A stretch of DNA of 64,000 nt from Bordetella sp. LUAb4 (GTDB taxonomy: Bacteria; Pseudomonadota; Gammaproteobacteria; Burkholderiales; Burkholderiaceae_B). The notes under the pieces are model-generated. The model was not told the DNA's origin and ran no database searches. It saw only the letters and a list, made by a program, of their open reading frames with translations. Position numbers and translations under genes: made by a program. Below are positions 43,894-57,712 of this stretch, piece by piece (within the stretch, counting starts at the first letter, position 1; every line of letters starts with the position of its first letter). The DNA lies in contig NZ_JAHPZX010000001.1 of assembly GCF_021325795.1 (NCBI RefSeq), forward strand, positions 1,364,001 to 1,428,000, written 5' to 3'.

Positions 43894-44769
43894 ATGTTGT
43901 ACGAATCCTTAGCCTGGCTGACCTGGGCTTGCATCTTTTTAGCAGCAGCATGCGCCTGGTTGCAGCCGCCCCGATGGCGGATTCACCTGCCGGTGCTGCT
44001 CGCTTGCGGCTACACGGCGGCGACCCTGGATTTACAGCTTTCCTGGGAAGCTCTGGTCGTCCTGGCCGCCCTGGTTATCGCAGGAGGATCCGTCCAGCCA
44101 CGCAAGCCGCCTCTACTGCGCTTCCTGGGCCATGTGGTCTATATCGTGATGGCCGTCGCATTGGGTGCACATCTGCTACCCGGCTTCCAGAATCCAGCGG
44201 CGATTTACGCTTTGCGCATAACGCCGGATGCCACGCCTTTTACGATGTTTTTGAACTTGGACAAGCCGCTGGTGGGATTCTGGGCGGTACTTGCGCTGCC
44301 CTGGATAACGGCACGCCGCTTCTGGCGACAGGTTCTTTCCGCGACGGGGGCGGCGCTGCTGCTGGGCGTACCGGTATGTATGGCGCTGGCCTTGGCGCTG
44401 GGGATGGTGAACTGGGCACCTAAGGTGCCGCCGGACGCGTTGCTCTGGGTCCTGAATAATCTACTTTTGGTCGCCGTAGCGGAGGAGGCGTTCTTCCGTG
44501 CATATGTGCAAGGTGGGCTCGCCCGGCTCTTGGACAATGGGGCGAAAGCTCGCATCGGTGCATTATTTGTGTCGGCGATTCTCTTTGGATTGGCGCATTA
44601 CTCCGGGGGATGGCGCTGGATGCTGCTGGCAGGCGTGGCGGGTGTCGCGTACGGCTGGGCTTATCAACGCGGCGGTCTACGAGCGGCAGTGTTGACGCAT
44701 TTCGGTCTGAATGCCGTGCATTTCTTCTTTTTTACCTATCCGGGATTGCAAGCGTCCGCAATGAATTAA
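43894..44769 (+). CDS. CPBP-family intramembrane glutamic endopeptidase
   Basis: 291 residues with about eight helices. The Rce1/CPBP motifs are all present in order: 'VAEEAFFRAYVQG' (EExxxR), 'FGLAHYSGG' (FxxxH) and 'THFGLNAVHF' (HxxxN/B). Such proteases process prenylated proteins in eukaryotes and are linked to bacteriocin immunity or processing in some bacteria. It is the last ordinary gene before the tail cluster, but the start, at ATG 43894 after a GGA, gives no sign of co-regulation with it. Confidence 0.85.
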   Translation: MLYESLAWLTWACIFLAAACAWLQPPRWRIHLPVLLACGYTAATLDLQLSWEALVVLAALVIAGGSVQPRKPPLLRFLGHVVYIVMAVALGAHLLPGFQNPAAIYALRITPDATPFTMFLNLDKPLVGFWAVLALPWITARRFWRQVLSATGAALLLGVPVCMALALALGMVNWAPKVPPDALLWVLNNLLLVAVAEEAFFRAYVQGGLARLLDNGAKARIGALFVSAILFGLAHYSGGWRWMLLAGVAGVAYGWAYQRGGLRAAVLTHFGLNAVHFFFFTYPGLQASAMN

Positions 44770-44840
44770 ACACGGGGTTGATTCCTTCCCGAGTCTAGAC
44801 AACCCGCGCTCGCCGGGACACCCATGCATGCCATAGTCCC

Positions 44841-44865
44841 GATGCCCCCGATTTATTCGGGCATC
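44841..44865. terminator. Inverted repeat between protease and recombinase genes
   Basis: GATGCCC / GGGCATC separated by 11 bases that themselves contain CCG...CGG. It lies 18 bases before the recombinase start and could end transcription from the protease gene or regulate the recombinase. No T-run follows. Confidence 0.35.
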
Positions 44866-44882
44866 GGCGATAGAATTCGGCC

Positions 44883-45902
44883 ATGAGACCTAAACGCCGA
44901 CGCATACGCTTATCCGTTCCCTCTTTGGCTCAGGCCTTGGAGCGTTATCTGACTGAGGTTTCAACCACCAAGAAGGGGGTGGTGTCGGAGCGATCGATTG
45001 CCAGGATCTGGCTGGGGACTCGGCTTGCAGGGCGGCCGGTGGACCGGATACGCAGCGCTGATCTGGCGGATTTGCGGGATGAGTGGTTGAAGGATCGGGC
45101 CGCGGCCACGGTGGTGCGCCGGATGGCGTTTCTTTCGCACGTATATACGGTGATCCGCAAGGATTGGGGGCTTGATTGGTTGGCCAATCCTGTGCAGTTG
45201 GTCCGGCGACCTGCGGTGGCGGATTCGCGTGATCGGCGGTTGTTCGATCAGATACGGTTGCGCGGGGTGTCCGAAGGGGAATGTCCACGTGAGGAGCTGG
45301 CGTGGATCATCCGTGCGACGCGTTCAGCGGAACTGCCTACGATTTTGACTGTGGCCAAGGAGACCGGGATGCGGCGGTCGGAGGTGGTCGGGATTTTGCG
45401 CGAGAACCTCGATTTGCAGCATGGCGTCGTGCATCTTCCGCACACCAAAAATGGGCGAGCTCGGGATGTGCCGTTGACGCCGCTGGGGCGTGAGACTTTG
45501 CGGCGGTGGGTGGTCGGGAAGCCGATGCGCGGGCGGATTTTTTCGATGCGGCCGGGGTCGGTGACGCGGGCGTTTATCCGGGCTCGACTACGCGCGCGGC
45601 GGGAATACGAAGGGTTGTGCCGCGAGCATGGACGGCGGCCGAACCATGCTTATTTCCGGGATCTGAGGTTTCATGATTTGCGGCATGAGGGGACCTCGCA
45701 GCTGGCGACGGTTTTCCAGATTCATGAGTTGGCTAAGGTCAATGGGAACGTGGATACACGAATGCTGTTGCGGTACTACCATCCGCACGGGCGGGAGCTG
45801 GCGCAGAAGTTGGCGCGTAGCCCTTTGGGGCGGAGGCAGTTGGATCAGATTCGGCAGCAACGGATCGCGGTTGATGATGGCGCGATGGCGTTAGCGGCTT
45901 GA
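44883..45902 (+). CDS. Rci-like tyrosine recombinase, candidate tail-fibre shufflon invertase
   Basis: 339 residues. An N-terminal core-binding domain ('SLAQALERYLTEVSTTKKG', 'RMAFLSHVYTVIRKDWGL') is followed by a catalytic domain: Arg in 'KETGMRRSEVVG', Lys in 'LPHTKNGRARDVPL', H-x-x-R in 'FHDLRHEGTSQL' and a nucleophile-type Tyr in 'LLRYYHP'. The usual His of the 'GH' element before the Tyr is Asn here ('VNGNVDTR'). The N-terminal pattern resembles shufflon recombinase Rci rather than a typical prophage integrase. It lies convergent to the fibre genes, overlapping the fibre-assembly gene by 12 bases, next to five copies of a 16-bp site. An integrase role is the alternative. Confidence 0.85.
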   Translation: MRPKRRRIRLSVPSLAQALERYLTEVSTTKKGVVSERSIARIWLGTRLAGRPVDRIRSADLADLRDEWLKDRAAATVVRRMAFLSHVYTVIRKDWGLDWLANPVQLVRRPAVADSRDRRLFDQIRLRGVSEGECPREELAWIIRATRSAELPTILTVAKETGMRRSEVVGILRENLDLQHGVVHLPHTKNGRARDVPLTPLGRETLRRWVVGKPMRGRIFSMRPGSVTRAFIRARLRARREYEGLCREHGRRPNHAYFRDLRFHDLRHEGTSQLATVFQIHELAKVNGNVDTRMLLRYYHPHGRELAQKLARSPLGRRQLDQIRQQRIAVDDGAMALAA

Positions 45903-46385
45903 TGGTTTGGCGGTCTTCTTCGCGGGAGGCTTGGCTGCTTTGCTTGATTTTGTCGCTTTTGATGGCTGCGCCGCTTTAGCTGTCTCGGCCTTTCTGGGCG
46001 TCTTGATGGCCTTGACCTGGTTGCTCACGTCAACCGTCGAGGAGGACGACGGCTTGGGCGGCGGCTGTGTGGTGGTCAACCAGGAAGGAAGAGTTCCCCA
46101 GCCTGGGTAGGTGACGTTACTGCCGCCGACGTTAACCGTAGACCCGAGAGCGTATGCATGGCCCCCTAGCTCGTTTATCCATAAAGGGGTGTGCCGATAG
46201 TCGTCGATCAAAGCCCACCGACTACCTCCCCATTGCGCAACCTTGCCAGCGGCGGCGTTTGGCGGTGTCGATTCCACCGCGAGGTACGGCAGGTTATAGA
46301 CGCCAGGGTCCAGCGCCAGATCATTGGCGATGGTTTGGTGCATGTATAGCCCGTACTTGTCTGTCTGATAGACGGTTTTTTGCAT
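45891..46385 (-). CDS. Tail-fibre assembly/chaperone-like protein with Lys-Ala-Pro tail
   Basis: 164 residues, last gene of the tail operon. 'TDKYGLYMHQTIANDLAL', 'LPYLAVESTPPNAAAGKVA' and 'WGGSRWALIDDYRHTPLW' resemble the N-terminal domain of phage tail-fibre assembly proteins, which sit right after the fibre gene and help fold its tip. Residues about 118-164 are Lys/Ala/Pro/Ser-rich low complexity. ATG 46385 has AGGA eight bases upstream; ATG 46391 and a TTG at 46418 are in frame but worse placed. Recombination site 1 lies 25 bases upstream, so this gene is just outside the invertible DNA. Confidence 0.65.
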   Translation of the reverse strand: MQKTVYQTDKYGLYMHQTIANDLALDPGVYNLPYLAVESTPPNAAAGKVAQWGGSRWALIDDYRHTPLWINELGGHAYALGSTVNVGGSNVTYPGWGTLPSWLTTTQPPPKPSSSSTVDVSNQVKAIKTPRKAETAKAAQPSKATKSSKAAKPPAKKTAKPSSR

Positions 46386-46410
46386 GGTCATTTCCTGAAG
46401 AAGGGTTTTG

Positions 46411-46426
46411 CACTGCAAATGTGAGA
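46411..46426 (+). repeat. Inversion site 1 (+ orientation)
   Basis: CACTGCAAATGTGAGA, a full match to the 16-bp consensus CACTGCAAATGYRAGA. Outer left boundary of the array. Reads into cassette A, coding T-A-N-V-R in that cassette's frame. Confidence 0.85.
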
Positions 46427-46651
46427 GTGCTGGGGAGCCGACAGCTGGATGCGCTCCAGAACATCACGGGCGCGGGCATTATTACCACCTCAATTCCCTC
46501 CGGAGCATTCCAGGGGCCATCTACGACCGGCGGCTATACGCTGGGTGGTACCGCATTCGTTCAAGCCTCCTTTAGTGCTGCGCTGGTCGCTCGGACTGCC
46601 ACGGAGACCCGGCCCACGAACGCCGCCTACTGCCCTCGAATTCATGCTTGA
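46412..46651 (+). CDS. Silent tail-fibre C-terminal cassette A
   Basis: 79 codons from the site to a stop, with no start codon or ribosome site of its own. Begins 'TANVRVLGSRQLDALQNITG' and ends 'ETRPTNAAYCPRIHA', the same beginning and end as the expressed fibre tip with a different middle. It is expressed only if inversion between sites 1 and 5 joins it to the fibre gene. The 'ETRPxNxxxxPRIH' ending is common in phage tail fibres. Confidence 0.8.
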   Translation, partial: TANVRVLGSRQLDALQNITGAGIITTSIPSGAFQGPSTTGGYTLGGTAFVQASFSAALVARTATETRPTNAAYCPRIHA

Positions 46652-46660
46652 CGTACCTTT

Positions 46661-46676
46661 CACTGCAAATGTGAGA
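46661..46676 (+). repeat. Inversion site 2 (+ orientation)
   Basis: CACTGCAAATGTGAGA, identical to sites 1 and 5. It lies between cassettes A and B. Direct orientation relative to sites 1 and 3; inverted relative to sites 4 and 5. Confidence 0.85.
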
Positions 46677-46913
46677 CCGCTCGCTGGGCGACAATTGGAC
46701 GCGTTGCAGCGGATCGTAGGCATGGTAGACGGGTATAACGATTTTCTCAGTTCGGATGGAGCGATGTTCGGCGGCAATGCGAGCACGAATGCTCCGAACC
46801 TGGGTTCCCGCGCCACCAACCATCAGCTCGCTTTCGATTCCGCAAGGGTGACTCGCTCATCGACAGAAACACGCCCACTGAATGTTTCTCTTCTCCCTCG
46901 GATCCATGCTTGA
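46662..46913 (+). CDS. Silent tail-fibre C-terminal cassette B (copy of the expressed tip)
   Basis: 83 codons, 'TANVRPLAGRQLDALQRIVG' to 'ETRPLNVSLLPRIHA', no start signal. By eye it is base-for-base the same as the expressed tip at 47518-47769, in the opposite orientation. The identity continues through the following inversion site. Confidence 0.82.
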   Translation, partial: TANVRPLAGRQLDALQRIVGMVDGYNDFLSSDGAMFGGNASTNAPNLGSRATNHQLAFDSARVTRSSTETRPLNVSLLPRIHA

Positions 46914-46922
46914 CGTCCGCTT

Positions 46923-46938
46923 CACTGCAAATGCAAGA
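46923..46938 (+). repeat. Inversion site 3 (+ orientation)
   Basis: CACTGCAAATGCAAGA; differs from sites 1, 2 and 5 at positions 12 and 13 (CA for TG) and matches site 4. Leads into cassette C. Confidence 0.85.
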
Positions 46939-47190
46939 GTGTTCGGCTCGTACCAAAGTGATGCTTTTCAAGCCCACATGATGGGTAGCATTCAGGTTTT
47001 GTCTGGTGGGCAAGATCCGGTCAACGTAATTCAGTCCACTTATGAGTTGAGAGGCGGACGACTCCTTGACGGCTGGCCACTCGTCGGCGTCTACGGCCAA
47101 ATCGTGGATGACTTTGTGCATGGAGTGCCACGTACCGGGTACGAAACGCGGCCGCTAAATGTGGCGTACGCCCCCCGACTACATATCTGA
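46924..47190 (+). CDS. Silent tail-fibre C-terminal cassette C
   Basis: 88 codons, 'TANARVFGSYQSDAFQAHMM' to 'ETRPLNVAYAPRLHI'. No start signal in front of the site; ATGs upstream belong to the end of cassette B read in another frame. Inversion between sites 3 and 5 would join it to the fibre. The middle part is unlike A, B or D. Confidence 0.8.
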   Translation, partial: TANARVFGSYQSDAFQAHMMGSIQVLSGGQDPVNVIQSTYELRGGRLLDGWPLVGVYGQIVDDFVHGVPRTGYETRPLNVAYAPRLHI

Positions 47191-47270
47191 CACTGCGTCA
47201 CCGCAAGGTGGCTGAGGGACCAAGGCACGACTAACCAACGTCACATTTCATCGGGGAGTCATGCATAAAA

Positions 47271-47507
47271 CTAGGCGTGTATTCGTGGGTAGTAAACGAC
47301 GTTCACAGGACGACTTTCCGGGCCGCCGCTCGCGGCCGTGCTGCCCCCGTTTGACTGCATCCACCCTGTAGGATCTACGGCGATGTTGGCGTATCCCCCC
47401 GTTTCCGGAATCATGTTGAGCACGAAATTTCGACCCGCTGATGGGACATGAAAGTGCGATCTGTTCGAGTCGCCTTGGCGCGTACCCGCAGTTCTTGCAT
47501 TTGCAGT
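47271..47507 (-). CDS. Silent tail-fibre C-terminal cassette D
   Basis: 78 codons on the minus strand, 'TANARTAGTRQGDSNRSHFH' to 'ESRPVNVVYYPRIHA'. Shares a site-3-to-site-4 segment with cassette C, tail to tail. It would need two inversions (sites 3-4, then 3-5) to be expressed. The 'SHFH' element is like the His-bearing knobs of collar-type fibres. Confidence 0.8.
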   Translation of the reverse strand, partial: TANARTAGTRQGDSNRSHFHVPSAGRNFVLNMIPETGGYANIAVDPTGWMQSNGGSTAASGGPESRPVNVVYYPRIHA

Positions 47508-47508
47508 G
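47493..47508 (-). repeat. Inversion site 4 (- orientation)
   Basis: CACTGCAAATGCAAGA on the minus strand, identical to site 3. It ends the expressed cassette B segment and begins cassette D. Confidence 0.85.
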
Positions 47509-47517
47509 AAGCGGACG

Positions 47518-48534
47518 TCAAGCATGGATCCGAGGGAGAAGAGAAACATTCAGTGGGCGTGTTTCTGTCGATGAGCGAGTCACCCTTGCGGAATCGAAAG
47601 CGAGCTGATGGTTGGTGGCGCGGGAACCCAGGTTCGGAGCATTCGTGCTCGCATTGCCGCCGAACATCGCTCCATCCGAACTGAGAAAATCGTTATACCC
47701 GTCTACCATGCCTACGATCCGCTGCAACGCGTCCAATTGTCGCCCAGCGAGCGGTCTCACATTTGCAGTGTCAGCGTCAGTTCCTGTGTATCGCCGGAAC
47801 ATATTGCGTAAATCCGGGAGCTGGAACTTGTCGCCGGCATCCACGAAATAGTGGGCGCCGACGTTGGCGGTCCAGGTTGCCTGGTCTTTCACCAAACCGT
47901 TTTCCTGCGCATAGCCCCATAAGCCGGCGTAAGCGGTTTTGCTAAGAAGGCCGCCTACGGCGTCGACTTCGTTGGGTAGGGGGACGGTGGTGTGGCCGTC
48001 CAGAGGGCGGCCGCATAGGGGGGAGCGGTAGCCAGTGAAGTAGGTTGTACTGACCCAAATCCAGATTTCGCCACATTCAGCGATCACTACCGGGCCGACA
48101 TCCTGGGTCGGAAGGGCGAGGATGGAGCAGACTCTTGGCAACGACGCCCACGCGGGTGAACTGCCCGCGTCCGGGTCGGACTTGTTGTCGTCGGCCGCAC
48201 TTATCCACAACCTGGTGCCGTCTGCGCTTCGCAAAATGGCTGACAGAGGATAGCCACCAATCGCATTGGCAAAGTCGCTGTCGTAGGGATACCCGCCGCC
48301 AGCTTGAATCCAACGCACGGCAGAACTCAGAAAGTTCAGGATGCCGTTGAAGTCTTTTCCATTGGGTGGCACGCCGCCGGCCGCCAGTGGGGTCATGGTC
48401 AGCGGTGGGAAGCCATCCGTGAAGGATGCCGCTCCAGGCGCGATGCCAGCCTGCGATGCCTCGGGAATCGTGTTTTTGGCGCCGCCATCAGCAAATGGCA
48501 CCGCGGATCTGTTGGGAAAATCGCTGGCCTTCAT
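47518..48534 (-). CDS. Tail fibre with exchangeable C-terminus (currently tip B)
   Basis: 338 residues. Constant region: residues 1-255, with an N-terminal domain ('VPFADGGAKNTIPEAS', 'GFPPLTMTPLAAGGVPPNGK', 'DFNGILNFLSSAVRWIQAGG') shared with the other fibre and a collar-like segment 'GDKFQLPDLRNMFRRYTGTD'. Residues 256-338 are cassette B, entered through inversion site 5. The start has GAGGAA six bases upstream. The tip is predicted to contact the target cell surface, so switching should change host or target range. The paralogous N-terminus probably docks on the baseplate. Confidence 0.88.
   Translation of the reverse strand: MKASDFPNRSAVPFADGGAKNTIPEASQAGIAPGAASFTDGFPPLTMTPLAAGGVPPNGKDFNGILNFLSSAVRWIQAGGGYPYDSDFANAIGGYPLSAILRSADGTRLWISAADDNKSDPDAGSSPAWASLPRVCSILALPTQDVGPVVIAECGEIWIWVSTTYFTGYRSPLCGRPLDGHTTVPLPNEVDAVGGLLSKTAYAGLWGYAQENGLVKDQATWTANVGAHYFVDAGDKFQLPDLRNMFRRYTGTDADTANVRPLAGRQLDALQRIVGMVDGYNDFLSSDGAMFGGNASTNAPNLGSRATNHQLAFDSARVTRSSTETRPLNVSLLPRIHA
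47755..47770 (-). repeat. Inversion site 5 (- orientation), crossover point in the expressed fibre
   Basis: CACTGCAAATGTGAGA on the minus strand, in frame inside the fibre gene where it codes T-A-N-V-R. It is the right boundary of the array and the point where alternative tips are joined. Confidence 0.88.
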
Positions 48535-48659
48535 TTAAAGATTCCTCATCTGACTAAGAGACCACACCGAAATGTTTTCCACCGAAAGCCGGACTGGGCT
48601 ATCCCAGTTTTCGAGGGCCAGCCTACTCATTCTTCACAAATTAGGTCGTAGCAAACCCA

Positions 48660-49991
48660 CTAATATTTGATGACTACTAGGCCGAACCCGCCCACTGCAC
48701 CTGTCCCAGAACTCGAGGAACCACGCCCCCCGCCTCCTCCCCCAGGAGCACAACCACCAGCCGACTCCCCCCCTCCCGCACCGCCACCGGGTCCACCGAA
48801 CGCCCCTGCACCGCCGATACCGCCTACCGCGCCGACCCCCGGACTGCCCTGCGACCCGTATCCTCCCCCGGCGTTCAGCAATCCCCCGGAGCCGACACCT
48901 CCCGGCCCGCCGTTACCCGATCCATTTGGCTGACCGCCAATTCCTCCAGAAGCGCGCAGAAAAGATCCGAACGTTGTCGTCCCTCCAGTTCCCCCAGCGG
49001 TGCCCACATTGCCGGTATCGCCCCTGCCGGGCGCGCCACCCAGGCCGACAGTGCACTCAATTACTTGCCCTGGTGTGACCGCATATACACCACGGGCATA
49101 CCCGCCCCCACCGCCGCCTCCCGCAGCCCATGTGTTGATGGAAAGTCCAACCCCGCCCCCGCCTCCTCCACCGCCCCAAACTTCAACGTCGACCCAATAA
49201 ACGTCTGCCGGAACCGTCCAAACCCCATTCGCATTGAAATATGCGAGCCCATGATTCCAAGCGTAGCTTCTCTGTACTTGTCCCAGCTGGACGGCGTGCG
49301 TCGACGCAGTCGCAGCACCAACTTGCTGGGCTGGCAGGACGATTCCGGTCCCGTCGCCATGCACATTCGCCGCACCACCCTGAGCCAGGGCAACGCCACT
49401 GCCCGATGCGGTTTTGCAAGTGACCGAGAAACTTCCAACGGTTCCGTTGACGACGAGCCACTGCTGACGAGTTTCGGGGAAGATGAGATTGATATTTGCT
49501 GATAACGTCCCAGCCAAGGTGATGATCGGCTTTGCATACTGAGCGGCCGTAAGCTGGACATCAGCGGTCGATAAACCCGTGATCGCCGCAAGCCCCTGGT
49601 TGAACGCAGGGACCCAGTCTCCATTACCAAGCTCAGGCCGCGTCTTGTTGTTATCCACGACGCTGATCCAGAACCCATCCAAGAGTTCGTTCAGCAGCAC
49701 CGCGCCTTTTGGATAGCCACCGATGGCAGTTGCGAAGTCAGCGTCGAAGACATATGAGCCCCCTGTCTGGGCCCATCGCGACACTGAGGAGATGAGGTAC
49801 AAGATCCCATTGAAATCAGCGCCGGTCGGCGGAATTCCGCCTGCTGCGATGGGTGTCATCGTGATAGGTGGAAAACCCACCTCCAATGACGCCGATCCTG
49901 GCGTTGGCAAGGGGGCTGTTGGAATGATGTTCTTGGTCCCGCTATTCGCGAACGGCACCTCTATCAACGCCGGCTTGTCGCTAGCTTGCAT
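48660..49991 (-). CDS. Tail fibre/spike with glycine-rich C-terminus
   Basis: 443 residues. The N-terminal 110 residues are paralogous to the variable fibre ('VPFANSGTKNIIPTAP', 'GFPPITMTPIAAGGIPPTGA', 'DFNGILYLISSVSRWAQTGG'). Middle: beta-rich. From about residue 285 a glycine-rich domain with 'VEVWGGGGGGGGVG', many GG/GA steps and 'GFGLVVIKY' at the end, as in glycine-rich tail-fibre adhesins whose loops read receptors. ATG 49991 overlaps the previous gene by 11 bases. No inversion site lies in it, so this fibre is fixed. A 125-base gap separates it from the variable fibre. Confidence 0.82.
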   Translation of the reverse strand: MQASDKPALIEVPFANSGTKNIIPTAPLPTPGSASLEVGFPPITMTPIAAGGIPPTGADFNGILYLISSVSRWAQTGGSYVFDADFATAIGGYPKGAVLLNELLDGFWISVVDNNKTRPELGNGDWVPAFNQGLAAITGLSTADVQLTAAQYAKPIITLAGTLSANINLIFPETRQQWLVVNGTVGSFSVTCKTASGSGVALAQGGAANVHGDGTGIVLPAQQVGAATASTHAVQLGQVQRSYAWNHGLAYFNANGVWTVPADVYWVDVEVWGGGGGGGGVGLSINTWAAGGGGGGGYARGVYAVTPGQVIECTVGLGGAPGRGDTGNVGTAGGTGGTTTFGSFLRASGGIGGQPNGSGNGGPGGVGSGGLLNAGGGYGSQGSPGVGAVGGIGGAGAFGGPGGGAGGGESAGGCAPGGGGGGRGSSSSGTGAVGGFGLVVIKY

Positions 49992-50682
49992 ACACCACTC
50001 CCGTAAACATCGTCCCTTGCCCGAATGGCGCGAAGGTATCGACCCCCGCCTCGGCAAATCCGAACACGTTCGGCACGGGGATCTGCGCTATCGACACCGC
50101 GACCGCCGCCGGCCGGGGTACGGCATTCGATTGCGTCATGATCGCCATCTCGAACGGCTCCAGATAGAACTCGAACGTGAACCGCATCTGCATGTCGCCC
50201 AGATCGTTCACGTAGCAACGCCCTCTGTCCTGGAATAAGTTCTGCAGCAGCTGATTCAAACTCGGCGCGGTGCAGTCCGATATGTTGGCCAAGGCTTTGA
50301 CCAGAATCAGCGTGCGGTACGCTTCGTCGGGCAGTGTGTAGCTGTCCAACGTCGGTTCGCCATTCGCGAACGGTGCCTGGCCGAACGGTTGGGGGCCGAG
50401 CGTCGCGCTCGCCGCTGTGTAGGCTTCGTCGAAGCCTAGAGACACATTCGCTCCAGGTATCGTCAACTGCCTCCCCACATTCACAATCCTCCCCCAAATA
50501 TCCAACCCAAACCCCTCCGCGGTATGCACGTTCCACACGTAGTCGTAGAACGCATCCAGATCCGCATCCGGGTTGATGTAGTCGTCCATGTTGTTGCACA
50601 ACTGGACGAGCGTCGGGCTGTTGGCGTACTGGCTGATAAATGTCTGCGCGACGCGGCCGGGTTTGGGCTTGATGTCGGTCAT
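49981..50682 (-). CDS. Baseplate wedge/tail protein, DUF2612-like (gpI position)
   Basis: 233 residues. 'AQTFISQYANSPTLVQLCNN', 'YDYVWNVHTAEGFGLDIWGR' and 'YRTLILVKALANISDCTAPS' with 'LNQLLQNLFQDRGRCYV' match the DUF2612 phage tail family that follows gpJ in simple contractile tails. It should link the wedge to the fibres. Overlaps gpJ by four bases. The last 40 residues repeat 'FAEAGVDTFAPFGQG', similar to a phrase in the middle ('QPFGQAPFANG'). Confidence 0.75.
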   Translation of the reverse strand: MTDIKPKPGRVAQTFISQYANSPTLVQLCNNMDDYINPDADLDAFYDYVWNVHTAEGFGLDIWGRIVNVGRQLTIPGANVSLGFDEAYTAASATLGPQPFGQAPFANGEPTLDSYTLPDEAYRTLILVKALANISDCTAPSLNQLLQNLFQDRGRCYVNDLGDMQMRFTFEFYLEPFEMAIMTQSNAVPRPAAVAVSIAQIPVPNVFGFAEAGVDTFAPFGQGTMFTGVVYAS

Positions 50683-51884
50683 ACCAGCTTCACCGTGATG
50701 TCGTTGGCATTGATCGTCGGCCGGCTATCGATGGGTACGGTGTAGCTGGCCAGCGTGGCAGTGTCAGGGCCAATCAACAGAGACAAAATCGATACATTGT
50801 TCGCCAACGCCACCACCGGTGCGTAATACCGGCTGGCGAATAGTGTCGCGCCGATGCGCGCTCGTACGCCGCCGTCAGCGCCATCGAAGGCGTCGATGAT
50901 GGCCTGCCTGGTCAAGGGCACGATGTCCGCCGGCAGCGCGGGATCGTTGGCGATCTCTACGGCGAACTTGATCGGCAAGGCCTGCGCGGTTTGCCACGTG
51001 ACGCGATACGTCGGATAAGGATACGCATACCCCGTCTTGTCCTGCACCTCATATGAGGTGTTGCCGTTGTAATTCGCCCCCAAGGATTTCTTGCGCCAGA
51101 TGGCATGCGCGATGTCCTCGACGGCGCCGCCGAAAACAGCGATCCAGATCGAATGCGGCGCCAACGTCACGTTGCCTATCGTTATCGGCGCCGCGGTGAC
51201 GTTCTCCGCCGCATACGCATCAATCACACCGGCAACATTCAATACGTTGGCATAAATGGACTGCAGTGAGTTGACGGCATTCAGGGCAACGGACTGCCTG
51301 CGCCTGTCTTCGAACTCCGCGCGGCTTTCGACATTACTGCCGGGCGTGCCGTCCTCGGCATTCAATACCGAGTCCCAGCCGGTGATCGATTGGTAAATCT
51401 GATTCAGCTGGCCGACCGGGCACGCGATCGGTCCGTTCGTCGAACATGCGAACGCCAAATCGACGGAGCCCGACGCCGGTATCGTGCCCTGCTGGGTACA
51501 CAGATAGATGCTGCCGTCCGTCGCCTTCGCCTGCGCGCCGACAGGAATGATCGTTCCCGCCAACCCCATGCAGGTCGCCACCACCGCTGTTGGTGTGCCA
51601 GGCTTGCGCTCCAGAAAATAAATATACCCGATCGCATCCTGCATGCGCCCTTCAGCGAAAACGGGATTCACCTGGTTCACGATGCTGGCAATCTCATCGT
51701 TCTTGCGTCCGATGATGGCCGTGGTACTCGTGGCCAATTGGCCTTGCGGGGTTTCCAGCGCGCGATTCATCCCTCCGCCGAAAGCGGCGTCCTGGTCGGC
51801 CTGGACACCATCCAGAATGGACGATTCAGCCGGCAATACCAGACCCTGCGGAGTCCACTGGATGGCTGGAACACGAGTCGCCAT
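50679..51884 (-). CDS. Baseplate J-like wedge protein
   Basis: 401 residues. 'ESSILDGVQADQDAAFGGGM', 'TPQGQLATSTTAIIGRKNDE' near the N-terminus and 'AEDGTPGSNVESRAEFEDRR' in the middle are typical of baseplate J/gp47-like wedge proteins, which start sheath contraction. The ATG at 51884 has TGAGG six bases upstream; an earlier in-frame start would overlap gp25. Seven bases after gp25. Confidence 0.88.
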   Translation of the reverse strand: MATRVPAIQWTPQGLVLPAESSILDGVQADQDAAFGGGMNRALETPQGQLATSTTAIIGRKNDEIASIVNQVNPVFAEGRMQDAIGYIYFLERKPGTPTAVVATCMGLAGTIIPVGAQAKATDGSIYLCTQQGTIPASGSVDLAFACSTNGPIACPVGQLNQIYQSITGWDSVLNAEDGTPGSNVESRAEFEDRRRQSVALNAVNSLQSIYANVLNVAGVIDAYAAENVTAAPITIGNVTLAPHSIWIAVFGGAVEDIAHAIWRKKSLGANYNGNTSYEVQDKTGYAYPYPTYRVTWQTAQALPIKFAVEIANDPALPADIVPLTRQAIIDAFDGADGGVRARIGATLFASRYYAPVVALANNVSILSLLIGPDTATLASYTVPIDSRPTINANDITVKLV

Positions 51885-51891
51885 GCTTACC

Positions 51892-52242
51892 TCAGAAAGT
51901 GACGTTGTGAGCAGCGCCATCGCTGTCGGTGACCAGGATCAGGCCGGTGAATGTGCGCGCCTGCAAGGCCAGGCCTACGCAACGGGCGGCCGCGACGCCT
52001 GGCACGGTCATCGCCGCGCGCTCGATCTGCGTACGTATCAATGACTCCGGCGGCCACGCACCGAGAATCTGCTCGAAATAAGGCACACCCTTGGTGGTGT
52101 CGTAATACAGTTCACCCAAAAACAGGCGCACCGCACTGGCGACGTCCTGCGCCATGGCATAGGGTTCATCGGCGACCGCCCAATTACCCGAAGCATCCAG
52201 CACCAGGTCCCATGCGCGTTGATCTAGCAGCATCGTTTTCAT
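51892..52242 (-). CDS. gp25-like sheath initiator / baseplate protein
   Basis: 116 residues, the usual size for gpW/gp25-lysozyme-fold wedge proteins. 'QDVASAVRLFLGELYYDTTK' and 'GVPYFEQILGAWPPESLIRT' are the conserved core. It nucleates the sheath on the baseplate. Overlaps the spike gene by four bases. Confidence 0.82.
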   Translation of the reverse strand: MKTMLLDQRAWDLVLDASGNWAVADEPYAMAQDVASAVRLFLGELYYDTTKGVPYFEQILGAWPPESLIRTQIERAAMTVPGVAAARCVGLALQARTFTGLILVTDSDGAAHNVTF

Positions 52243-52994
52243 GATGTCGGCGGATTGGTTTGACCGCCCTTGCCGTTTTCAGCATGGGTATGGCCGGTAA
52301 GGCTGATGCCGGAAGCATTGACGTCGGCATTCACCTGCAAAGGGCCCTGCATCGTGGCCGCGCCGCCACGTGGGCCGGCGCCCTGCGTCAACGAGCCATC
52401 CAGTTCTATCGACGCTGCGGATACTTTGACGTCCGCATCGGCGCTTAATGTGATTCCCTTCGATGCCTGCAATGCGATATCGGGCGCGGACAGGCGGATC
52501 GAGGTCGGGGATACGATGTCTATCCCGTCTGCGCCGAAGCGGATGTATTGCTTCGGCACGCCGTTCAACACGCCCCCAAAATAAATGCCATCCGCCATGT
52601 CGAAGGACCGCGCCGATCCGGGGTTGGCTTGTCCCTTGGTCGCCTTGACCGAGGATATGTCGCGACAGGCATATGCGGCCAGGCCGATGTCGCCTACCCG
52701 TGGATCCAGGATGACGGCGTTGTCGCCACCTTGAAGACGAAAGTACGGCAGGTGATAAACGGTGCCATGCGGTACGGCATTACCGGCGCCGTCGACCTGG
52801 TTCACTAAAGGCTGCACGTCTACATAACCCACCGGCTCCAAGCCGCCGCTATTGGTCACGGACACGACACGCACCAGGTCGATGGTGCGTACTTCCTTTA
52901 GCAGTACGCTGCGGACCAGGAATAGCAAGGCACCGAGTTGGCTATTGCCCTCGCCAGGGGCAAGCAGGCCGGTGTATCCGGTTTCATTTGCCAT
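52239..52994 (-). CDS. Baseplate spike, Gp138/gpV-like membrane-puncturing protein
   Basis: 251 residues. N-terminal OB-like part: 'RVVSVTNSGGLEPVGYVDVQ', 'YFRLQGGDNAVILDPRVGD', 'IGLAAYACRDIS' (Gp138 N-terminal type). The second half is a repetitive beta-helix-like shaft ('VSPTSIRLSAPDIALQASKG', 'ITLSADADVKVSAASIELDG'). The end has 'GHTHAENGKGGQTNPP', an H-x-H metal motif seen at spike tips. It pierces the outer membrane on contraction. Overlaps the hub gene by 11 bases. Confidence 0.88.
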   Translation of the reverse strand: MANETGYTGLLAPGEGNSQLGALLFLVRSVLLKEVRTIDLVRVVSVTNSGGLEPVGYVDVQPLVNQVDGAGNAVPHGTVYHLPYFRLQGGDNAVILDPRVGDIGLAAYACRDISSVKATKGQANPGSARSFDMADGIYFGGVLNGVPKQYIRFGADGIDIVSPTSIRLSAPDIALQASKGITLSADADVKVSAASIELDGSLTQGAGPRGGAATMQGPLQVNADVNASGISLTGHTHAENGKGGQTNPPTS

Positions 52995-54294
52995 TCTTGG
53001 GCCTCACGCAAGTCAGCTGCGTAGTCCATCCGCCGGCACTTGCGGCGGCGCCGGATGCCGCCGCCGCTGCGGCTGCTCCACCTGCCGGCGCACCGCCACC
53101 TGATCCACCTCCCTGCCCTCCCCCTCCTGTTCCACTCCCTGCTTTTGCCGCAGTCGCGGCAGCGGCACCGGTCGCGCCCGCACCCGCGGCACCACCCCCG
53201 CCGCCGCCGCCGCCCGGGCTGGCCGCCATCAAGGCCGAAAGCGTGTGCTTATAAGCCGTCACCACCCACAAGCCATTCGCCATGCCGAGCGAAGTCCGCA
53301 CCATCACGAGCATCCCCAAGGACCAGGACGAGCTCTCGGGGGATGACGCCTTCGTGGCCGAGGTTTGATCCGCGGTCGGCGTTTTACCTCCGGGAGCCGG
53401 TTTTCCTGATGCAGCCAATGCCGCTGTTTGCACCAAGCCCGAGCTTGAGCCAAACGCCGAACCGGAACGGGAGCCCGAACCGGATCCTGAAGCGGAACCC
53501 GGCTTGGACCCAGACCCCGCCGGCTTCGGTGGCGACAAATCATCCCCCACCGACCACGCATCCACCAACGACGCCGATAGCGACGGGTTGTAGAGCATAT
53601 TCACCGTGACGCCACTCGAGGTAAACGAGGGATACCCCATCAACCCCGTCTCGGGGGAGATCTCCACCGCCGCGCTCTGCCGTCCCGCATCGGGCGGCCA
53701 GATTGCCAAGATGCCGTGCTCGATGGAATACGGAACATTCGCTGCCCGCGCACACGCCTTGACCTGATCCAACGCCGTGCCGGGAAAATACGACGGCGGC
53801 AGCTTGACCGATACGCCATTGCCTTCAAAACCCAGTCCCATCTGAACCGCTTTGCTTTCCATGAACGTCTGCACGTCCACCGCGTCTTTGAAAGAACTCG
53901 GAGGCACCGGCTTTACCGCGCCCGTCAGATGCGTCGTCGCCGTCACATGCCATGCAACATCGGGTAGCTTCCCGTAGTCCGCGACCGAAGCATCGATCTC
54001 TCCATCGAAGACCATTCCGTACATGCCGCGCTCATCGCCCGCAAAGACACGGATGCGGTTCTTACGCAAATCCTGAACATAGGGTCCGGTCGTCGTCAGG
54101 CAGTTGAGCATGTCGGCCGACAATCCCCATACGGCCAACGTCAGTTTCGAACTCGACTGGGATCCCATTAAAGCGCTCTCGACGCCCACCGAACACCGAT
54201 ATCCCGACAGCGTCACATCCGGACCTGGCTCATCTCCCTTGTCGCCTTGTCCAAGATTGACCGTAATATCGATGCGACGCATGGCGAAACTCAT
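52984..54294 (-). CDS. Baseplate hub protein with low-complexity C-terminus
   Basis: 436 residues. The N-terminal 235 residues form a hub domain ('CSVGVESALMGSQSSSKLTL', 'LRKNRIRVFAGDERGMYGMV', 'TFMESKAVQMGLGFEGNGV') like those of DUF-type gpD/gp27 hubs in simple myophages. From about residue 255 long Gly/Ser/Pro/Ala-rich runs take over, broken by one ordered piece 'GMLVMVRTSLGMANGLWVVT'. The low-complexity runs are unusual for a hub, which normally must fit tightly around the spike. Confidence 0.75.
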   Translation of the reverse strand: MSFAMRRIDITVNLGQGDKGDEPGPDVTLSGYRCSVGVESALMGSQSSSKLTLAVWGLSADMLNCLTTTGPYVQDLRKNRIRVFAGDERGMYGMVFDGEIDASVADYGKLPDVAWHVTATTHLTGAVKPVPPSSFKDAVDVQTFMESKAVQMGLGFEGNGVSVKLPPSYFPGTALDQVKACARAANVPYSIEHGILAIWPPDAGRQSAAVEISPETGLMGYPSFTSSGVTVNMLYNPSLSASLVDAWSVGDDLSPPKPAGSGSKPGSASGSGSGSRSGSAFGSSSGLVQTAALAASGKPAPGGKTPTADQTSATKASSPESSSWSLGMLVMVRTSLGMANGLWVVTAYKHTLSALMAASPGGGGGGGGAAGAGATGAAAATAAKAGSGTGGGGQGGGSGGGAPAGGAAAAAAASGAAASAGGWTTQLTCVRPKNGK

Positions 54295-54590
54295 GACTCG
54301 CCATCCTCCAGATATAAAAGCTGGAAGCGATCGCCCAAACCCGAATACGTCGGGTCGTCGTATCCATGGAGATCGGCAAATGCCAGATCACCCGAGAAGC
54401 CTTGATAAGCCGTACGCACAATGCGTAAACGGTCCAGGCAACGCACGGTGCGAACAATGACCTTGTTGTACACGGCGAGATCCAGAAACAGCCCCGTCGA
54501 CTTCTGATAAACATTGATCTGGCAGTTCTGCCTGCCCAACAGCACACTCAAGGTCTGCGAAGGCACGGCGCGTAATGGGATGACTCTCAC
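54291..54590 (-). CDS. Baseplate plug-like small protein (Pam3 gp18/DUF6983-like)
   Basis: 99 residues. 'LRAVPSQTLSVLLGRQNCQI', 'VYQKSTGLFLDLAVYN' and 'GFSGDLAFADLHGYDDPTYS' with a final 'RFQLLYLEDGES' match the small plug protein between the tube end and spike in simplified contractile baseplates. Overlaps both neighbours by four bases. Confidence 0.75.
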   Translation of the reverse strand: MRVIPLRAVPSQTLSVLLGRQNCQINVYQKSTGLFLDLAVYNKVIVRTVRCLDRLRIVRTAYQGFSGDLAFADLHGYDDPTYSGLGDRFQLLYLEDGES

Positions 54591-55255
54591 TTGATGTCTC
54601 CCACGGCCACCGACCTGACCACGGACGTGCTGGCAGTCGGCATCGCTTGTACCTGGCCATCGTTGACGGGATCGGCGCCGCTGGGTTCCTTCACTTGGGA
54701 AAACAATGCCGTGGCGGAAAGATTGACCTCCTGGAAAGCCAGATCGACGAGCAACATCGTCGGGCCGCCGGTCACGGCCTGAGGCGTTGGCACCGACTGC
54801 CCATACGTGAACTTGATCAGATTGACGTTGGCGAACGCCGCCTGCGGCGTCACGATGGAGTAAAGCTCCGTCGAACTCACCATAAGGCTGATCTTCGTGA
54901 GGAAAACCTGGCAGTCGGCAGCATTGCCGCTGAAGGCCATCTTGACCTCGTTGCCTATCGGCGCCACGACCTTGTTGTAGGAAGAGAAGGCGCGAGCGTT
55001 ACCGCTGAAACCCACATCAAGCGGATAGCTGGCGATGCTGGCCGAGCGAGTGGCGGAGATACTGATGAACGTATCCGGCTCCAAAGCCAAACCGCCATCC
55101 TGGGTATAGATTCCCCATACCGAGGAACCAAATAGCAAGCCACCCGCGGCGTTGTAGACGCTCTGTTCCAGATAAGGAATCGATAGCGAGAAATCGCGCG
55201 GCAACGGTGGCACGCCGGGTTTGGGAGGGACCGCTGGGTATGGGATCAAAGGCAT
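54587..55255 (-). CDS. Tail tube/baseplate junction protein, unnamed family
   Basis: 222 residues. Proline-rich N-terminus ('YPAVPPKPGVPPLP'), then beta-rich sequence ('GGLALEPDTFISISATRSAS', 'YPLDVGFSGNARAFSSYNKV', 'MLLVDLAFQEVNLSATALFS'). I recognise the position (after tape measure, before plug and hub) from KPP10- and Pam3-like tails but not a named domain. Likely the distal-tube or hub adaptor. Start shares a base with the tape-measure stop (TAATG). Confidence 0.65.
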   Translation of the reverse strand: MPLIPYPAVPPKPGVPPLPRDFSLSIPYLEQSVYNAAGGLLFGSSVWGIYTQDGGLALEPDTFISISATRSASIASYPLDVGFSGNARAFSSYNKVVAPIGNEVKMAFSGNAADCQVFLTKISLMVSSTELYSIVTPQAAFANVNLIKFTYGQSVPTPQAVTGGPTMLLVDLAFQEVNLSATALFSQVKEPSGADPVNDGQVQAMPTASTSVVRSVAVGDIK

Positions 55256-56670
55256 TATCGCAATCCACTATTCAGCTGGAACGCCAAGGCCTGATCGTGC
55301 AAGGCGGTGGGCAGATCATTCGTGACGCCGTAAGCATCGGAAGGCTGCGTATAGACGTCGATGGGCACCTGGCTGTTCATAAGCGCGGCGGGTATCGCCT
55401 GAGCCTCGGGCAACGAAGCTGCCGATGTCATCAGACCGGTTGCACTCGGGGCATTGACGACCACGTTCGCGACATCCACGGCATTACCCAGTCCGATTCC
55501 ACTAACGTACATGTCGCGATAGAGAACGTGGGAAACGGCGGCATGACGTCTCGATTCGCTGGCGCCAGCGTCAGGGCTATTGGCGTTCCGTACGCCTTCA
55601 TACAGACGCGCGACGACTTCAGCCGCGCCCTGCGGCGTGGTCTCGGCACTCAAATTCCGGCCCGTGTCCGATTGCGCAATTCGCAGCTCCCAGTCCACGA
55701 AAGCCAATTGTTGATTCAGCGTGGATCCTCGGATATCGAATCCAAAAGTCTTTTTGAAATCGGCCTGTCGGTCGGCGCTCCATTGCGCCAGGCCATATGA
55801 TTTTCCGTCACTGCCGGCAGCGGCGGGATTCATGTCGCTCCGTGCCTGCAGAGTCGCCACGGTGCCGACGGCCTGTTCGCGGGTATAGCCTTTGTCTTCT
55901 AGCCATTGAACTGCCAGGCGCGCACGCTGCCGCGTCTCCATCGACGGCGTCGAGGTGTTTGAATCGAAGCGGCGTGCGGGTGTTGAAGGCTGAGATGCGA
56001 CCCACGACGCTGGCGCCGTGTCGCGGCCTTGCGTGACAGGGGGCGCTTGCCCTATCGAGGCGGTGAGGAGCGAAACGATGCTGTCATGACGAGCGGGGTC
56101 GGTAGCCGACCCATTGTTCGGAGCTATCGATTCGCCTGCGGACTGAAGCATCTGCAATTCGTAGGGATGTGCTCCCTCCAGATCCACATCCGCGGTAGCG
56201 GCCGTGGTCGTGGTCGTGGTCGAACCTGCAAAGAGGGAAGCAGCCCGCCGCCCTGTCTCTACCGCGTCGATCAGGGACACCGCGTATTCCTCCAATCCCC
56301 CGCTTGAGCTCGGCTTACCTACAGCGACCTGGGTCAAAGCGGTCGACAGCGGCGGCACAGGCGCCTGCACAGGCACAGGAGCAGACACAAGCACAAGCGG
56401 CGTTCCACCCGCCAGAGACGCCACATGCGCCCTGCACCACACATCCATCCGCGCGGCAATAAGCGCCAGCGTTCCGAACAAGCGCATACACGCCGCCATG
56501 GTCTCCAGCGCGGCGGCGAGGCGATCGTCCTCATCCGAAGCCAGCGCAGTGCCCCTGGACGCAGCAGGCGAGTCCGCGGCGGCGGTGCCCCCACCGCCGC
56601 CGCTCCTCGCCCTCCACTTCGCCCCCTTCAGGCTCAGCCCCACTACATCAACCACGCTAACCATATTCAA
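55255..56670 (-). CDS. Short tape-measure protein with phage tail lysozyme-like domain
   Basis: 471 residues. The N-terminal half is Ala/Gly/Pro-rich with one hydrophobic stretch ('MAACMRLFGTLALIAARMDV'). Residues about 260-390 resemble phage tail lysozyme: 'AVQWLEDKGYTREQAVGTVA', 'SYGLAQWSADRQADFKKTFG', 'LNQQLAFVDWELRI'. At the place where family members usually read 'xES' the sequence is 'ARSDMNP', so the catalytic Glu seems to be lost. Tape-measure length sets tail length; at 471 residues the tail should be short. Follows the frameshifted chaperone with a four-base overlap, the classic position. Confidence 0.78.
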   Translation of the reverse strand: MNMVSVVDVVGLSLKGAKWRARSGGGGGTAAADSPAASRGTALASDEDDRLAAALETMAACMRLFGTLALIAARMDVWCRAHVASLAGGTPLVLVSAPVPVQAPVPPLSTALTQVAVGKPSSSGGLEEYAVSLIDAVETGRRAASLFAGSTTTTTTAATADVDLEGAHPYELQMLQSAGESIAPNNGSATDPARHDSIVSLLTASIGQAPPVTQGRDTAPASWVASQPSTPARRFDSNTSTPSMETRQRARLAVQWLEDKGYTREQAVGTVATLQARSDMNPAAAGSDGKSYGLAQWSADRQADFKKTFGFDIRGSTLNQQLAFVDWELRIAQSDTGRNLSAETTPQGAAEVVARLYEGVRNANSPDAGASESRRHAAVSHVLYRDMYVSGIGLGNAVDVANVVVNAPSATGLMTSAASLPEAQAIPAALMNSQVPIDVYTQPSDAYGVTNDLPTALHDQALAFQLNSGLR

Positions 56671-56893
56671 CCTCGTGCGCTACTCAGCAAGGTTTCGTTG
56701 TGTACGTCCACCGCAATCACTTCCAGCATGTCGTACAGGTCTTGCGACCCGTACACCGTCTGTAATTCATGCAGCGTCGCCATCCGGCACGACACCACGC
56801 GGCCGATGGCGGGCGATACGTTCACCGGACGTATCAGGCGGCCATGGAACGAGCCGCTCCCTGAGCCGATATCGAGGGGGCGGCGTCGGTAAA
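56667..56893 (-). CDS. Frameshift extension of the tail-assembly chaperone (gpGT-like T part)
   Basis: Open in the -1 frame relative to the chaperone. After the slip it reads 'YRRRPLDIGSGSG...', ending 'LHELQTVYGSQDLYDMLEVI' and 'AVDVHNETLLSSARG', the sort of small C-terminal domain that follows chaperones in myophage tails. Together with the first 125 residues of the 56834-57265 gene it would give a fusion of about 199 residues. An internal ATG (56783) lacks a ribosome site, which favours the frameshift. The last codons overlap the tape-measure start. Confidence 0.7.
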
Positions 56894-57265
56894 AAAAGAC
56901 AGATGCAGATCCAACACTTCCTTGCGCAAGCGGAACAAGGTGGACACTTCCTCGATGTCGCCGTCCACCAGCGCGCGCAGCACGCGGGGACTGGGCTGGA
57001 TCTGGATGCACGTCAACATCTTGTCCAGCAACGGCCTGGCTTGCTCATAGGACACCCGCGACAGCGACTGCAAGCTCAAGGCCGCGACACCCGCCAGCCC
57101 GGCCGCGGCGATGTCGTCGGGAATCTCCACGCCCGCATTCATCATGGCGAACAGCGCGCGGGTCGCCCACTCTTCCGATTCGTAGGCCGACAGCTCCGTC
57201 GCGACGAAGATCTTGCCCTTGTCGCGGCCGTCGGCATCGATGGTGATAGTGACGGTTTTACGCAT
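56834..57265 (-). CDS. Tail-assembly chaperone (gpG-like, unshifted form)
   Basis: 143 residues. 'MRKTVTITIDADGRDKGKIF', 'YESEEWATRALFAMMNAGVE' and 'PSPRVLRALVDGDIEEVSTL' are typical of chaperones that lie between tube and tape measure in contractile tails. It starts right after the tube gene with an in-frame Met at the head of the conserved part. Contains the slippery run T TTT TTT at codons 124-125; about 18 codons remain before its own stop. Confidence 0.8.
   Translation of the reverse strand: MRKTVTITIDADGRDKGKIFVATELSAYESEEWATRALFAMMNAGVEIPDDIAAAGLAGVAALSLQSLSRVSYEQARPLLDKMLTCIQIQPSPRVLRALVDGDIEEVSTLFRLRKEVLDLHLSFFTDAAPSISAQGAARSMAA
56891..56897 (-). promoter_or_regulatory. Programmed -1 frameshift site T TTT TTT
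   Basis: On the minus strand the reading is CTG TCT TTT TTT ACC; the seven T form a perfect X XXY YYZ heptamer in the zero frame. A -1 slip continues into the frame ending at 56667. The location, between tube and tape measure, is the one where lambda G-GT and P2/Mu E-E' frameshifts occur. Confidence 0.75.
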
Positions 57266-57266
57266 A

Positions 57267-57701: not shown

Positions 57702-57712
57702 GATCTTTCCCC

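What the first reader, a model, noticed from the sequence alone, without database searches (positions are those of the whole stretch)
46411..47770. Shufflon-like multiple-inversion array at the end of a tail-fibre gene
Five copies of CACTGCAAATGYRAGA (three on +, two on -) each sit in frame at the start of an alternative fibre C-terminus. Four distinct cassettes (A 79, B 83, C 88, D 78 codons) all begin 'TAN[VA]R' and end near 'RPxNxxYxPRIH', and only one is joined to a promoter-bearing fibre gene. Site 5 with 1, 2 or 3 gives A, B or C; D needs a prior 3-4 inversion. Tail-fibre inversion systems and the R64 Rci shufflon are established; this site sequence and five-site layout are not ones I know.
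Basis: partly seen in the sequence, partly recalled or inferred. Interest (0 to 1): 0.93.

Follow-up and report, generated by a model that had tools for sequence, protein, structure and literature searches.

The report
Tail-fibre shufflon with tyrosine recombinase
A phage-tail gene cluster in a betaproteobacterial genome carries a DNA-shuffling cassette array that swaps the tip of its tail fibre; relatives caught in different arrangements suggest the shuffling is active, but the idea of shuffled tail fibres was already known.

Summary
Five exact copies of CACTGCAAATGYRAGA (46411, 46661, 46923 on +; 47493, 47755 on -) head in-frame tail-fibre tips of 79, 83, 88, 78 and 83 codons. One point was missed: cassette B plus both its sites is present twice as a perfect 278-bp inverted repeat. 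The likeliest reason is that the assembly merged two isomers, so the real array probably has four sites and four tips.

The array is a shufflon, most likely worked by the Rci-like tyrosine recombinase next door (44883-45902). The evidence comes from relatives: the recombinase-array-fibre-end module recurs in Achromobacter, Bordetella, Herbaspirillum and others; the site's DNA is conserved at silent codon positions; two metagenome contigs with over 99.8% identical flanks carry one 474-bp segment in opposite orientations; five assemblies hold junctions of two isomers.

The module sits in unrelated tail contexts: a P2-like prophage in one relative, and here a ~15.8-kb tail-only island (no head genes found), absent from three same-genus genomes.

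Closest described system: the bifidophage Rin shufflon (tyrosine recombinase, 11-bp sites). This is a new variant of that known kind. Not shown: inversion in this strain, fibre function, or that this recombinase is the enzyme.

The parts
44764..60537 (.). Approximate limits of the inserted tail-only island that holds the module
   Evidence: Nucleotide homology to a same-genus genome stops at about 44763 and resumes at about 60538; in three same-genus genomes EamA-CPBP lies directly beside the DUF6036/thiolase genes
44883..45902 (+). Tyrosine recombinase (339 aa), proposed shufflon invertase
   Evidence: PF00589 E 1.8e-14; 34% identical over residues 6-310 to the integrase beside pilV on plasmid CP074634; R164, K189, H264, R267 and Y298 invariant in all 10 aligned sequences, window included (that these are the catalytic residues is recalled)
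45891..46418 (-). Small gene between recombinase and array (open frame from a TTG at 46418; an in-frame ATG lies about 30 bases further in); probable tail-fibre accessory protein
   Evidence: phrog_1807 tail fiber protein E 1.7e-07; found in the same place in all 32 viral recombinase loci at 29-53%
46411..46426 (+). Site 1 (CACTGCAAATGTGAGA)
46412..46651 (+). Silent cassette A, 79 codons
46661..46676 (+). Site 2 (CACTGCAAATGTGAGA)
46662..46913 (+). Silent cassette B, 83 codons; exact copy of the fibre-joined cassette
46661..46938 (+). Left arm of the 278-bp perfect inverted repeat (site 2 + B + site 3)
46923..46938 (+). Site 3 (CACTGCAAATGCAAGA)
46924..47190 (+). Silent cassette C, 88 codons
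47271..47507 (-). Silent cassette D, 78 codons
47493..47508 (-). Site 4 (CACTGCAAATGCAAGA)
47493..47770 (-). Right arm of the 278-bp perfect inverted repeat (site 4 + B' + site 5); probably an assembly duplicate
47755..47770 (-). Site 5, inside the fibre gene (CACTGCAAATGTGAGA)
47518..48534 (-). Tail-fibre gene as assembled (338 aa): constant part about 47770-48534 plus cassette B'
   Evidence: phrog_12796 tail fiber E 6.5e-45 over residues 1-129; the half of the constant part next to site 5 is conserved in relatives
48660..50057 (-). Second fibre-like gene (glycine-rich C-terminus)
49981..60274 (-). Contractile-tail genes: DUF2612, baseplate J, wedge, hub, tail lysozyme, gp32-like, sheath, tail terminator, and ORFs without assignment

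Best explanation
This is a tail-fibre shufflon. The fibre gene (minus strand) has a constant N-terminal part that ends at a recombination site. Several alternative C-terminal tips, each headed by a copy of the site in the same reading frame, lie between it and a tyrosine recombinase gene. The recombinase recombines inverted copies of the site, crossing over within or next to the 11-bp core CACTGCAAATG, so that the DNA between them flips and a different tip is fused in frame to the constant part. Each cell, and the particles it makes, would then carry one of about four tips, most plausibly changing the surface receptor recognised. The module (recombinase, small fibre gene, array, fibre C-terminal half) moves as a unit between otherwise unrelated tail gene clusters. 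In this strain the real array is most likely s1>A s2>B s3>[C D]<s4-fibre (4 sites, 12 reachable arrangements); the assembled five-site order merges two of its isomers (my probability 0.7 for that sub-claim). SHOWN: the sites, frame, cassettes, module conservation, and inverted isomers in relatives. INFERRED: that this recombinase is the enzyme, activity in this strain, and the receptor function.
For: (1) Five exact in-frame sites, none in 100 shuffles. (2) 32 recombinase relatives in viral contigs; 28 of the 32 have their first site (0-3 mismatches) 370-461 bp past the gene. Of the other four, three contigs end 344-419 bp past the gene (L002, L010, L018) and L030 has a variant-core site at 658. 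(3) Silent-position test with cassettes picked by protein motif, not by DNA: Thr is ACT in 143 of 143, Ala GCA in 151 of 156, Asn AAT in 156 of 158, while Gly at codon 8 is GGT/GGA/GGC/GGG 37/34/33/15 of 119 (158 distinct cassettes from 65 of 77 loci examined, some loci being copies of one contig). So DNA, not only protein, is conserved. (4) Direct inversion: L082 versus L029, contigs of two metagenome data sets, fibre flank 99.97% and array flank 99.8% identical, the 474-bp two-cassette segment 100% identical but inverted, breakpoints at the sites; L037 also has the inverted form, L027 (flank 99.4%) a third arrangement. (5) In one assembly (IMG 2855751197) the same 592-bp segment lies in both orientations on two contigs. 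In 4 of 6 contig pairs examined from other assemblies (G024, G026, G183, IMG 2858950400) one cassette start is both on the recombinase-side contig and fused to the fibre on another contig; no overlap in G014 and G018. (6) Of 23 recombinase genes in draft genomes, 9 lie within 2 kb of a contig end on the array side, 0.73 expected from contig lengths, and 1 on the other side. (7) 146 of 154 distinct cassettes are intact.
Against: No reads from this strain were available, so activity here is not shown. The shared cassette starts on two contigs of one assembly could in principle be true second copies. Recombinases below about 55% identity mostly lack such arrays in my crude 11-mer screen, so the wider enzyme family is not diagnostic; that screen also found nothing at the pilV-shufflon plasmid locus that should have been a positive control. 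Some relatives have variant cores (CACTGCTAATG, CGCTGCAAATG and others, 29 of 158 cassettes; CTGCGAATGCG in L136). No experiment links recombinase and site. L015 and L032, two assemblies 99.95% identical over 6.2 kb, have the same order, so flipping need not be frequent. The recombinase lacks the C-terminal extension of the pilV-shufflon enzyme.
Confidence: 0.9

Rival explanations
1. Five sites and a genuinely duplicated cassette B: the 278-bp inverted repeat is real, produced by recombination between sister copies or by gene conversion.
For: The contig is long (1.55 Mb; 20 contigs in all) and crosses the array without a break; other arrays have more sites, up to 12 with intact cassettes (L250).
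Against: The copies are identical to the base and end exactly at the site edges. Only one other genome shows the same thing (L126, 260 bp exact; duplicate census), also a draft, also with the fibre-joined cassette as one copy. In 11 arrays from 10 genomes of 1-3 contigs no exact inverted repeat of 60 bp or more was found. Both halves of the window order are reachable isomers of the 4-site model that share the [C D] segment.
Confidence: 0.28
2. A fossil array: sites and recombinase were active in ancestors but the locus is now fixed in this strain.
For: The surrounding tail-only island may be a prophage remnant with no lysis genes found; two near-identical assemblies of a relative share the same order (L015, L032).
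Against: Recombinase and all cassettes are intact; the duplicate cassette is best explained by a mixed DNA population in this very strain.
Confidence: 0.1
3. The adjacent enzyme is only an integrase and the repeats are conserved coding motifs that recombine homologously now and then.
For: The enzyme matches general phage-integrase profiles and the repeats encode a conserved TAN[AV]R motif.
Against: Silent positions inside the site are nearly fixed while neighbouring codons vary freely; breakpoints fall at the sites; 16-bp repeats are poor substrates for homologous recombination (established knowledge); the enzyme travels with the array through unrelated tail clusters.
Confidence: 0.04

Closest known systems
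Rin shufflon of Bifidobacterium prophages (PMC6109161; section 8 read in full, other passages) and its Eggerthella counterpart (PMC8778435; passages only)
   Same: Tyrosine recombinase gene at one end, constant receptor-binding-protein gene at the other, variable C-termini between them, short asymmetric sites (11 bp), isomers seen in sequence data.
   Different: Site sequence (TTCCCTAACCC there, CACTGCAAATG here), host phylum, fibre family; here the module is found in different tail backbones and the tips share their ends (TAN[AV]R ... RPxNxxYxPRIH). Homology of the two recombinases was not tested.
Rci / pilV shufflon of R64-like plasmids
   Same: Tyrosine recombinase (34% identity over 90% of the window protein to the integrase beside pilV on plasmid CP074634), several alternative C-termini, multiple inversion; L250 has back-to-back sites and two-cassette segments, as I recall for R64.
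   Different: Target is a tail fibre, not a pilus-tip adhesin; the site differs from the R64 sfx site (recalled); the recombinase lacks the C-terminal extension.
Min (p15B), Gin (Mu), Cin (P1) tail-fibre inversion (as described in PMC6109161, and recalled)
   Same: Inversion swaps the tail-fibre C-terminus and host specificity; Min is multi-site.
   Different: Those use serine recombinases; this one is a tyrosine recombinase.
Prophage 03 of Pseudomonas fluorescens Pf-5 (PMC2647930; passages only)
   Same: A prophage with a myovirus-like tail region and a gene for an Rci-like integrase.
   Different: The passages seen describe no site array or fibre cassettes; relation to this clade was not tested.
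Carotovoricin Er tail-fibre inversion in a phage-tail-like bacteriocin (recalled, not looked up)
   Same: Inversion of a fibre gene in a tail-only particle.
   Different: Recalled as a two-fibre switch; here a multi-site array with a tyrosine recombinase.

Membership tests
Shufflon (multiple-inversion system, by function) | Several inverted and direct copies of a short site, each heading an alternative C-terminus of one gene | tested here: met
Shufflon (multiple-inversion system, by function) | Dedicated site-specific recombinase gene adjacent | tested here: met
   44883-45902; same neighbour in relatives. That it acts on the sites was not tested
Shufflon (multiple-inversion system, by function) | Isomers observed | tested here: met
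   In relatives only; in this strain inferred from the duplicated cassette
Rci / sfx shufflon family of R64-like plasmids | Recombinase homologous to the pilV-shufflon enzyme over its catalytic core | tested here: met
   34% over residues 6-310, compared with the enzyme of plasmid CP074634, not with R64 itself
Rci / sfx shufflon family of R64-like plasmids | C-terminal extension of the recombinase | tested here: not met
   Alignment ends at residue 310 of 339 here and 284 of 384 in the plasmid enzyme
Rci / sfx shufflon family of R64-like plasmids | pilV target and sfx site sequence | tested here: not met
   Target is a tail fibre; the sfx sequence is recalled and was not compared by a tool
Rin shufflon | Tyrosine recombinase, short asymmetric sites, constant RBP gene plus variable C-termini | tested here: met
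Rin shufflon | Common descent of recombinase, or same site | tested here: inconclusive
   Site differs; the Rin protein was not at hand for comparison
Min/Gin/Cin tail-fibre inversion | Serine recombinase | tested here: not met
   PF00589 tyrosine integrase
R-type tailocin (for the surrounding island) | Contractile tail genes without head or packaging genes | tested here: met
   17 ORFs tested (plus one overlapping frame): sheath, baseplate, hub, tail lysozyme; no capsid, portal or terminase match; terminase model PF03354 absent from the whole genome, one model only. Against: PHROGs files three of the 17 under 'head and packaging' as structural proteins; Pfam names one of these a tail protein (E217 gp32) and one DUF2612, the third was not run in Pfam
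R-type tailocin (for the surrounding island) | Lysis genes and conserved chromosomal place | tested here: not met
   No holin or endolysin match among the ORFs tested, only a tail-lysozyme domain; the place is empty in three same-genus genomes

The most novel reading that the evidence does not exclude
A tailocin with switchable aim: the ~15.8-kb tail-only island makes headless contractile particles, and the shufflon lets a clone produce a mixture of killing specificities, using a recombinase-plus-array module that betaproteobacterial prophages and tail islands exchange as a plug-in.
Probability: 0.35. Interest if true: 0.75.

Novelty: new variant of a known kind. Interest (0 to 1): 0.58.

Why it matters
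It gives a site, a candidate enzyme and dozens of natural arrays for a tyrosine-recombinase tail-fibre shufflon in Proteobacteria, where the tail-fibre inversion systems known to me are serine-type. The arrays are natural sets of interchangeable fibre tips with fixed ends, which shows where nature joins them. They also explain why contigs of Achromobacter and its relatives tend to end at this point, and warn that fibre genes there may be misassembled.

Tried and rejected
Looked for the same repeat layout around more distant recombinases (55 loci, including a pilV-shufflon plasmid locus): apart from L134 and L136, which are 62% and 64% relatives, only 3-4-copy 11-mers without an array pattern. 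The screen is crude and found nothing at the plasmid locus either, so it is weak negative evidence.

Looked for attachment-site repeats at the island ends: none clear among direct repeats of 14 nt or more. Promoter scan: none found. Solved structures: no sequence match for recombinase (E up to 0.01) or fibre (E up to 1). The annotated phage recombinases listed are 28-36% identical (best 40 of 75 records) and include Pseudomonas phages labelled 'shufflon-specific'; the one opened gave no repeated 11-mer.

First codon test picked sites by DNA pattern and so leaned towards conserved cores. It was repeated with cassettes picked by protein motif, which still counted some copies of one array twice and, through a hand-made drop list of 28 loci, lost one contig altogether (L003 = L121 = L229). 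redid it with no drop list and identical sequences counted once; the results hardly changed and one search is what I cite. Loci with recombinase below 60% identity (9 of 86) are left out of it. The intact-cassette and upstream-G counts were redone in the same way. One search printed no line for the window because of a name clash with alignment rows; redone. The contig-end count used 23 loci at 53% identity or more from genomes of over 3 contigs; left out were G025, G169, G121:C11 and G014:C48 (43-50% identity) and a fragment in G016:C2. One search repeats it from printed coordinates with the same result.

Literature: tailocin + shufflon, 0 papers; shufflon + Achromobacter, 2 papers, one opened at its passages and concerning a plasmid pilV, the other seen in the listing only; shufflon + tail fiber + prophage + recombinase, 7; shufflon + tyrosine recombinase + phage tail + inversion, 2; invertible + tail fiber + Rci + phage, 0. 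The statement that this site is undescribed rests on these, in an open-licence library only.
Full report
What is there. The window holds five exact copies of CACTGCAAATGYRAGA at 46411, 46661 and 46923 (+) and 47493 and 47755 (-); none of 100 shuffles of the window gave an exact copy, and the rest of the 6.66-Mb genome has one copy with one mismatch. Each is read in frame as TAN[AV]R and opens a cassette of 79, 83, 88, 78 and 83 codons. The cassettes share their first residues and the end RPxNxxYxPRIH and differ in the middle (33-51% identity to cassette A). The last site lies inside the tail-fibre gene 47518-48534 (phrog_12796, E 6.5e-45).

A missed point. Cassette B with both its sites is present twice as a perfect inverted repeat of 278 bp, whose identity begins and ends at the site edges. 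With four sites, s1>A s2>B s3>[C D]<s4-fibre, twelve arrangements are reachable by inversions between opposed sites. One has '>A >B >[C D]<' on the left, another has '[C D]< B'<' next to the fibre. An assembler that joins the two through their common [C D] segment (554 bp between the repeat arms) gives exactly the order in the window. The same pattern, 260 bp exact and again with the fibre-joined cassette as one copy, occurs in the draft L126, and none of 11 arrays from 10 genomes of one to three contigs shows an exact inverted repeat of 60 bp or more. I put 0.7 on this reading; reads would decide.

The enzyme. The gene 44883-45902 encodes a tyrosine recombinase (PF00589), 34% identical over residues 6-310 to the integrase next to pilV on plasmid CP074634 but without its C-terminal extension. 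Residues R164, K189, H264, R267 and Y298 are invariant in all ten aligned sequences; that they are the catalytic set is recalled knowledge.

The family. 32 relatives at 66-98% (best segment) were found in viral contigs and 19 named genome loci at 54% or more, in Achromobacter, Bordetella, Herbaspirillum, Paracandidimonas, Castellaniella and Paenalcaligenes (the scan kept the best 80 of 124). In the family of the host, 32 of 268 genomes have a match at E 1e-60 or better. In 28 of the 32 viral loci the first site lies 370-461 bp past the recombinase. Among arrays seen whole, the number of intact cassettes ranges up to 12; that array, L250, has five divergent site pairs 28 bp apart.

DNA-level constraint. 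With cassettes chosen by protein motif alone (158 distinct cassettes; 65 of 77 loci examined had one), threonine is ACT in 143 of 143, alanine GCA in 151 of 156 and asparagine AAT in 156 of 158, while glycine eight codons in is spread over all four codons (37/34/33/15); the 11-base core is exact in 129 of 158. Among sites within one mismatch of the pattern, a G at -8 occurs in 105 of 113 distinct array contexts and 24 of 24 fibre contexts, hinting at a left arm; part of this may reflect shared descent. In L027 versus L029 the bases after the core travel with the cassette, and likewise in L071/L075, so crossover lies within or before the core.

Isomers seen. L082 and L029, contigs of two metagenome data sets (by their IMG numbers), have 99.97% and 99.8% identical flanks, and between them a 474-bp segment with two cassettes that is 100% identical and inverted; L037 shows the inverted form too, and L027 (flank 99.4%) a third arrangement at a contig end. 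In assembly IMG 2855751197 a 592-bp segment lies in both orientations on two contigs. In G024, G026, G183 and IMG 2858950400 one cassette start, 91-111 bp long and reaching to within 8 bases of the end of the recombinase-side contig, is again fused to the fibre on another contig; in two further pairs, G014 and G018, no overlap was found. True second copies of the cassette would be the other reading. Of 23 draft loci, 9 have a contig end within 2 kb on the array side against 0.73 expected from contig lengths, and 1 on the other side. Against high activity: L015 and L032 share one order over 6.2 kb at 99.95% identity.

The module and its surroundings. Recombinase (mostly 72-85%) and the half of the fibre's constant part next to the site (mostly 62-75%; 30-57% in four loci) are far better conserved than the other tail genes, which are at 24-37% or not detected. 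In the same-genus genome G003 the module lies beside baseplate, lysis, terminase and portal genes, which I read as a P2-like prophage. In the window it lies in an island of about 15.8 kb, 44,764-60,537, with sheath, baseplate, hub and tail-lysozyme genes and no capsid, portal, terminase, holin or endolysin match among 17 ORFs tested, although PHROGs files three of them as structural proteins under head and packaging. Three same-genus genomes lack the insert (edges in one of them). The nearest sheath proteins listed, 43-50%, are in phage records of 35-48 kb. It may be a tailocin or a prophage remnant; I cannot tell which.

What is known. [quoted passage not shown] Serine-type Min, Gin and Cin do the same to coliphage fibres (same source). 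A prophage of P. fluorescens Pf-5 carries an Rci-like integrase gene (PMC2647930, passages). So the principle is known; the site, the recombinase clade, its spread through prophages of Achromobacter and its relatives, and the tail-only setting are, as far as my searches reach, not described.

Noticed in passing
L250 (G068:C1:2308900-2315900): Very large relative array: 12 intact cassettes, with sites in five divergent back-to-back pairs 28 bp apart, giving two-cassette segments much as recalled for R64.
   Followed up: partly
window 44764-60537: Tail-only island of contractile type inserted between a CPBP protease gene and DUF6036/thiolase genes; three same-genus genomes have no insert.
   Followed up: partly
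window 59819-60274: Unassigned 151-aa ORF at the upstream end of the tail operon; could be a late-gene regulator (impression only, no database match).
   Followed up: no
window 44836-44870: Inverted repeat CCCGATGCCC...GGGCATCGG just before the recombinase start, seen by eye; possible operator or terminator.
   Followed up: no
L136 (Castellaniella sp. MAG), 1916-2638 past the recombinase start: Three copies of a variant core (CTGCGAATGCG) beside a 64% recombinase, suggesting that recombinase and site co-vary.
   Followed up: no
L001 and L008: A cassette of the same cluster (single linkage at 93% DNA identity) occurs in arrays of different elements, so tips themselves seem to be exchanged.
   Followed up: partly
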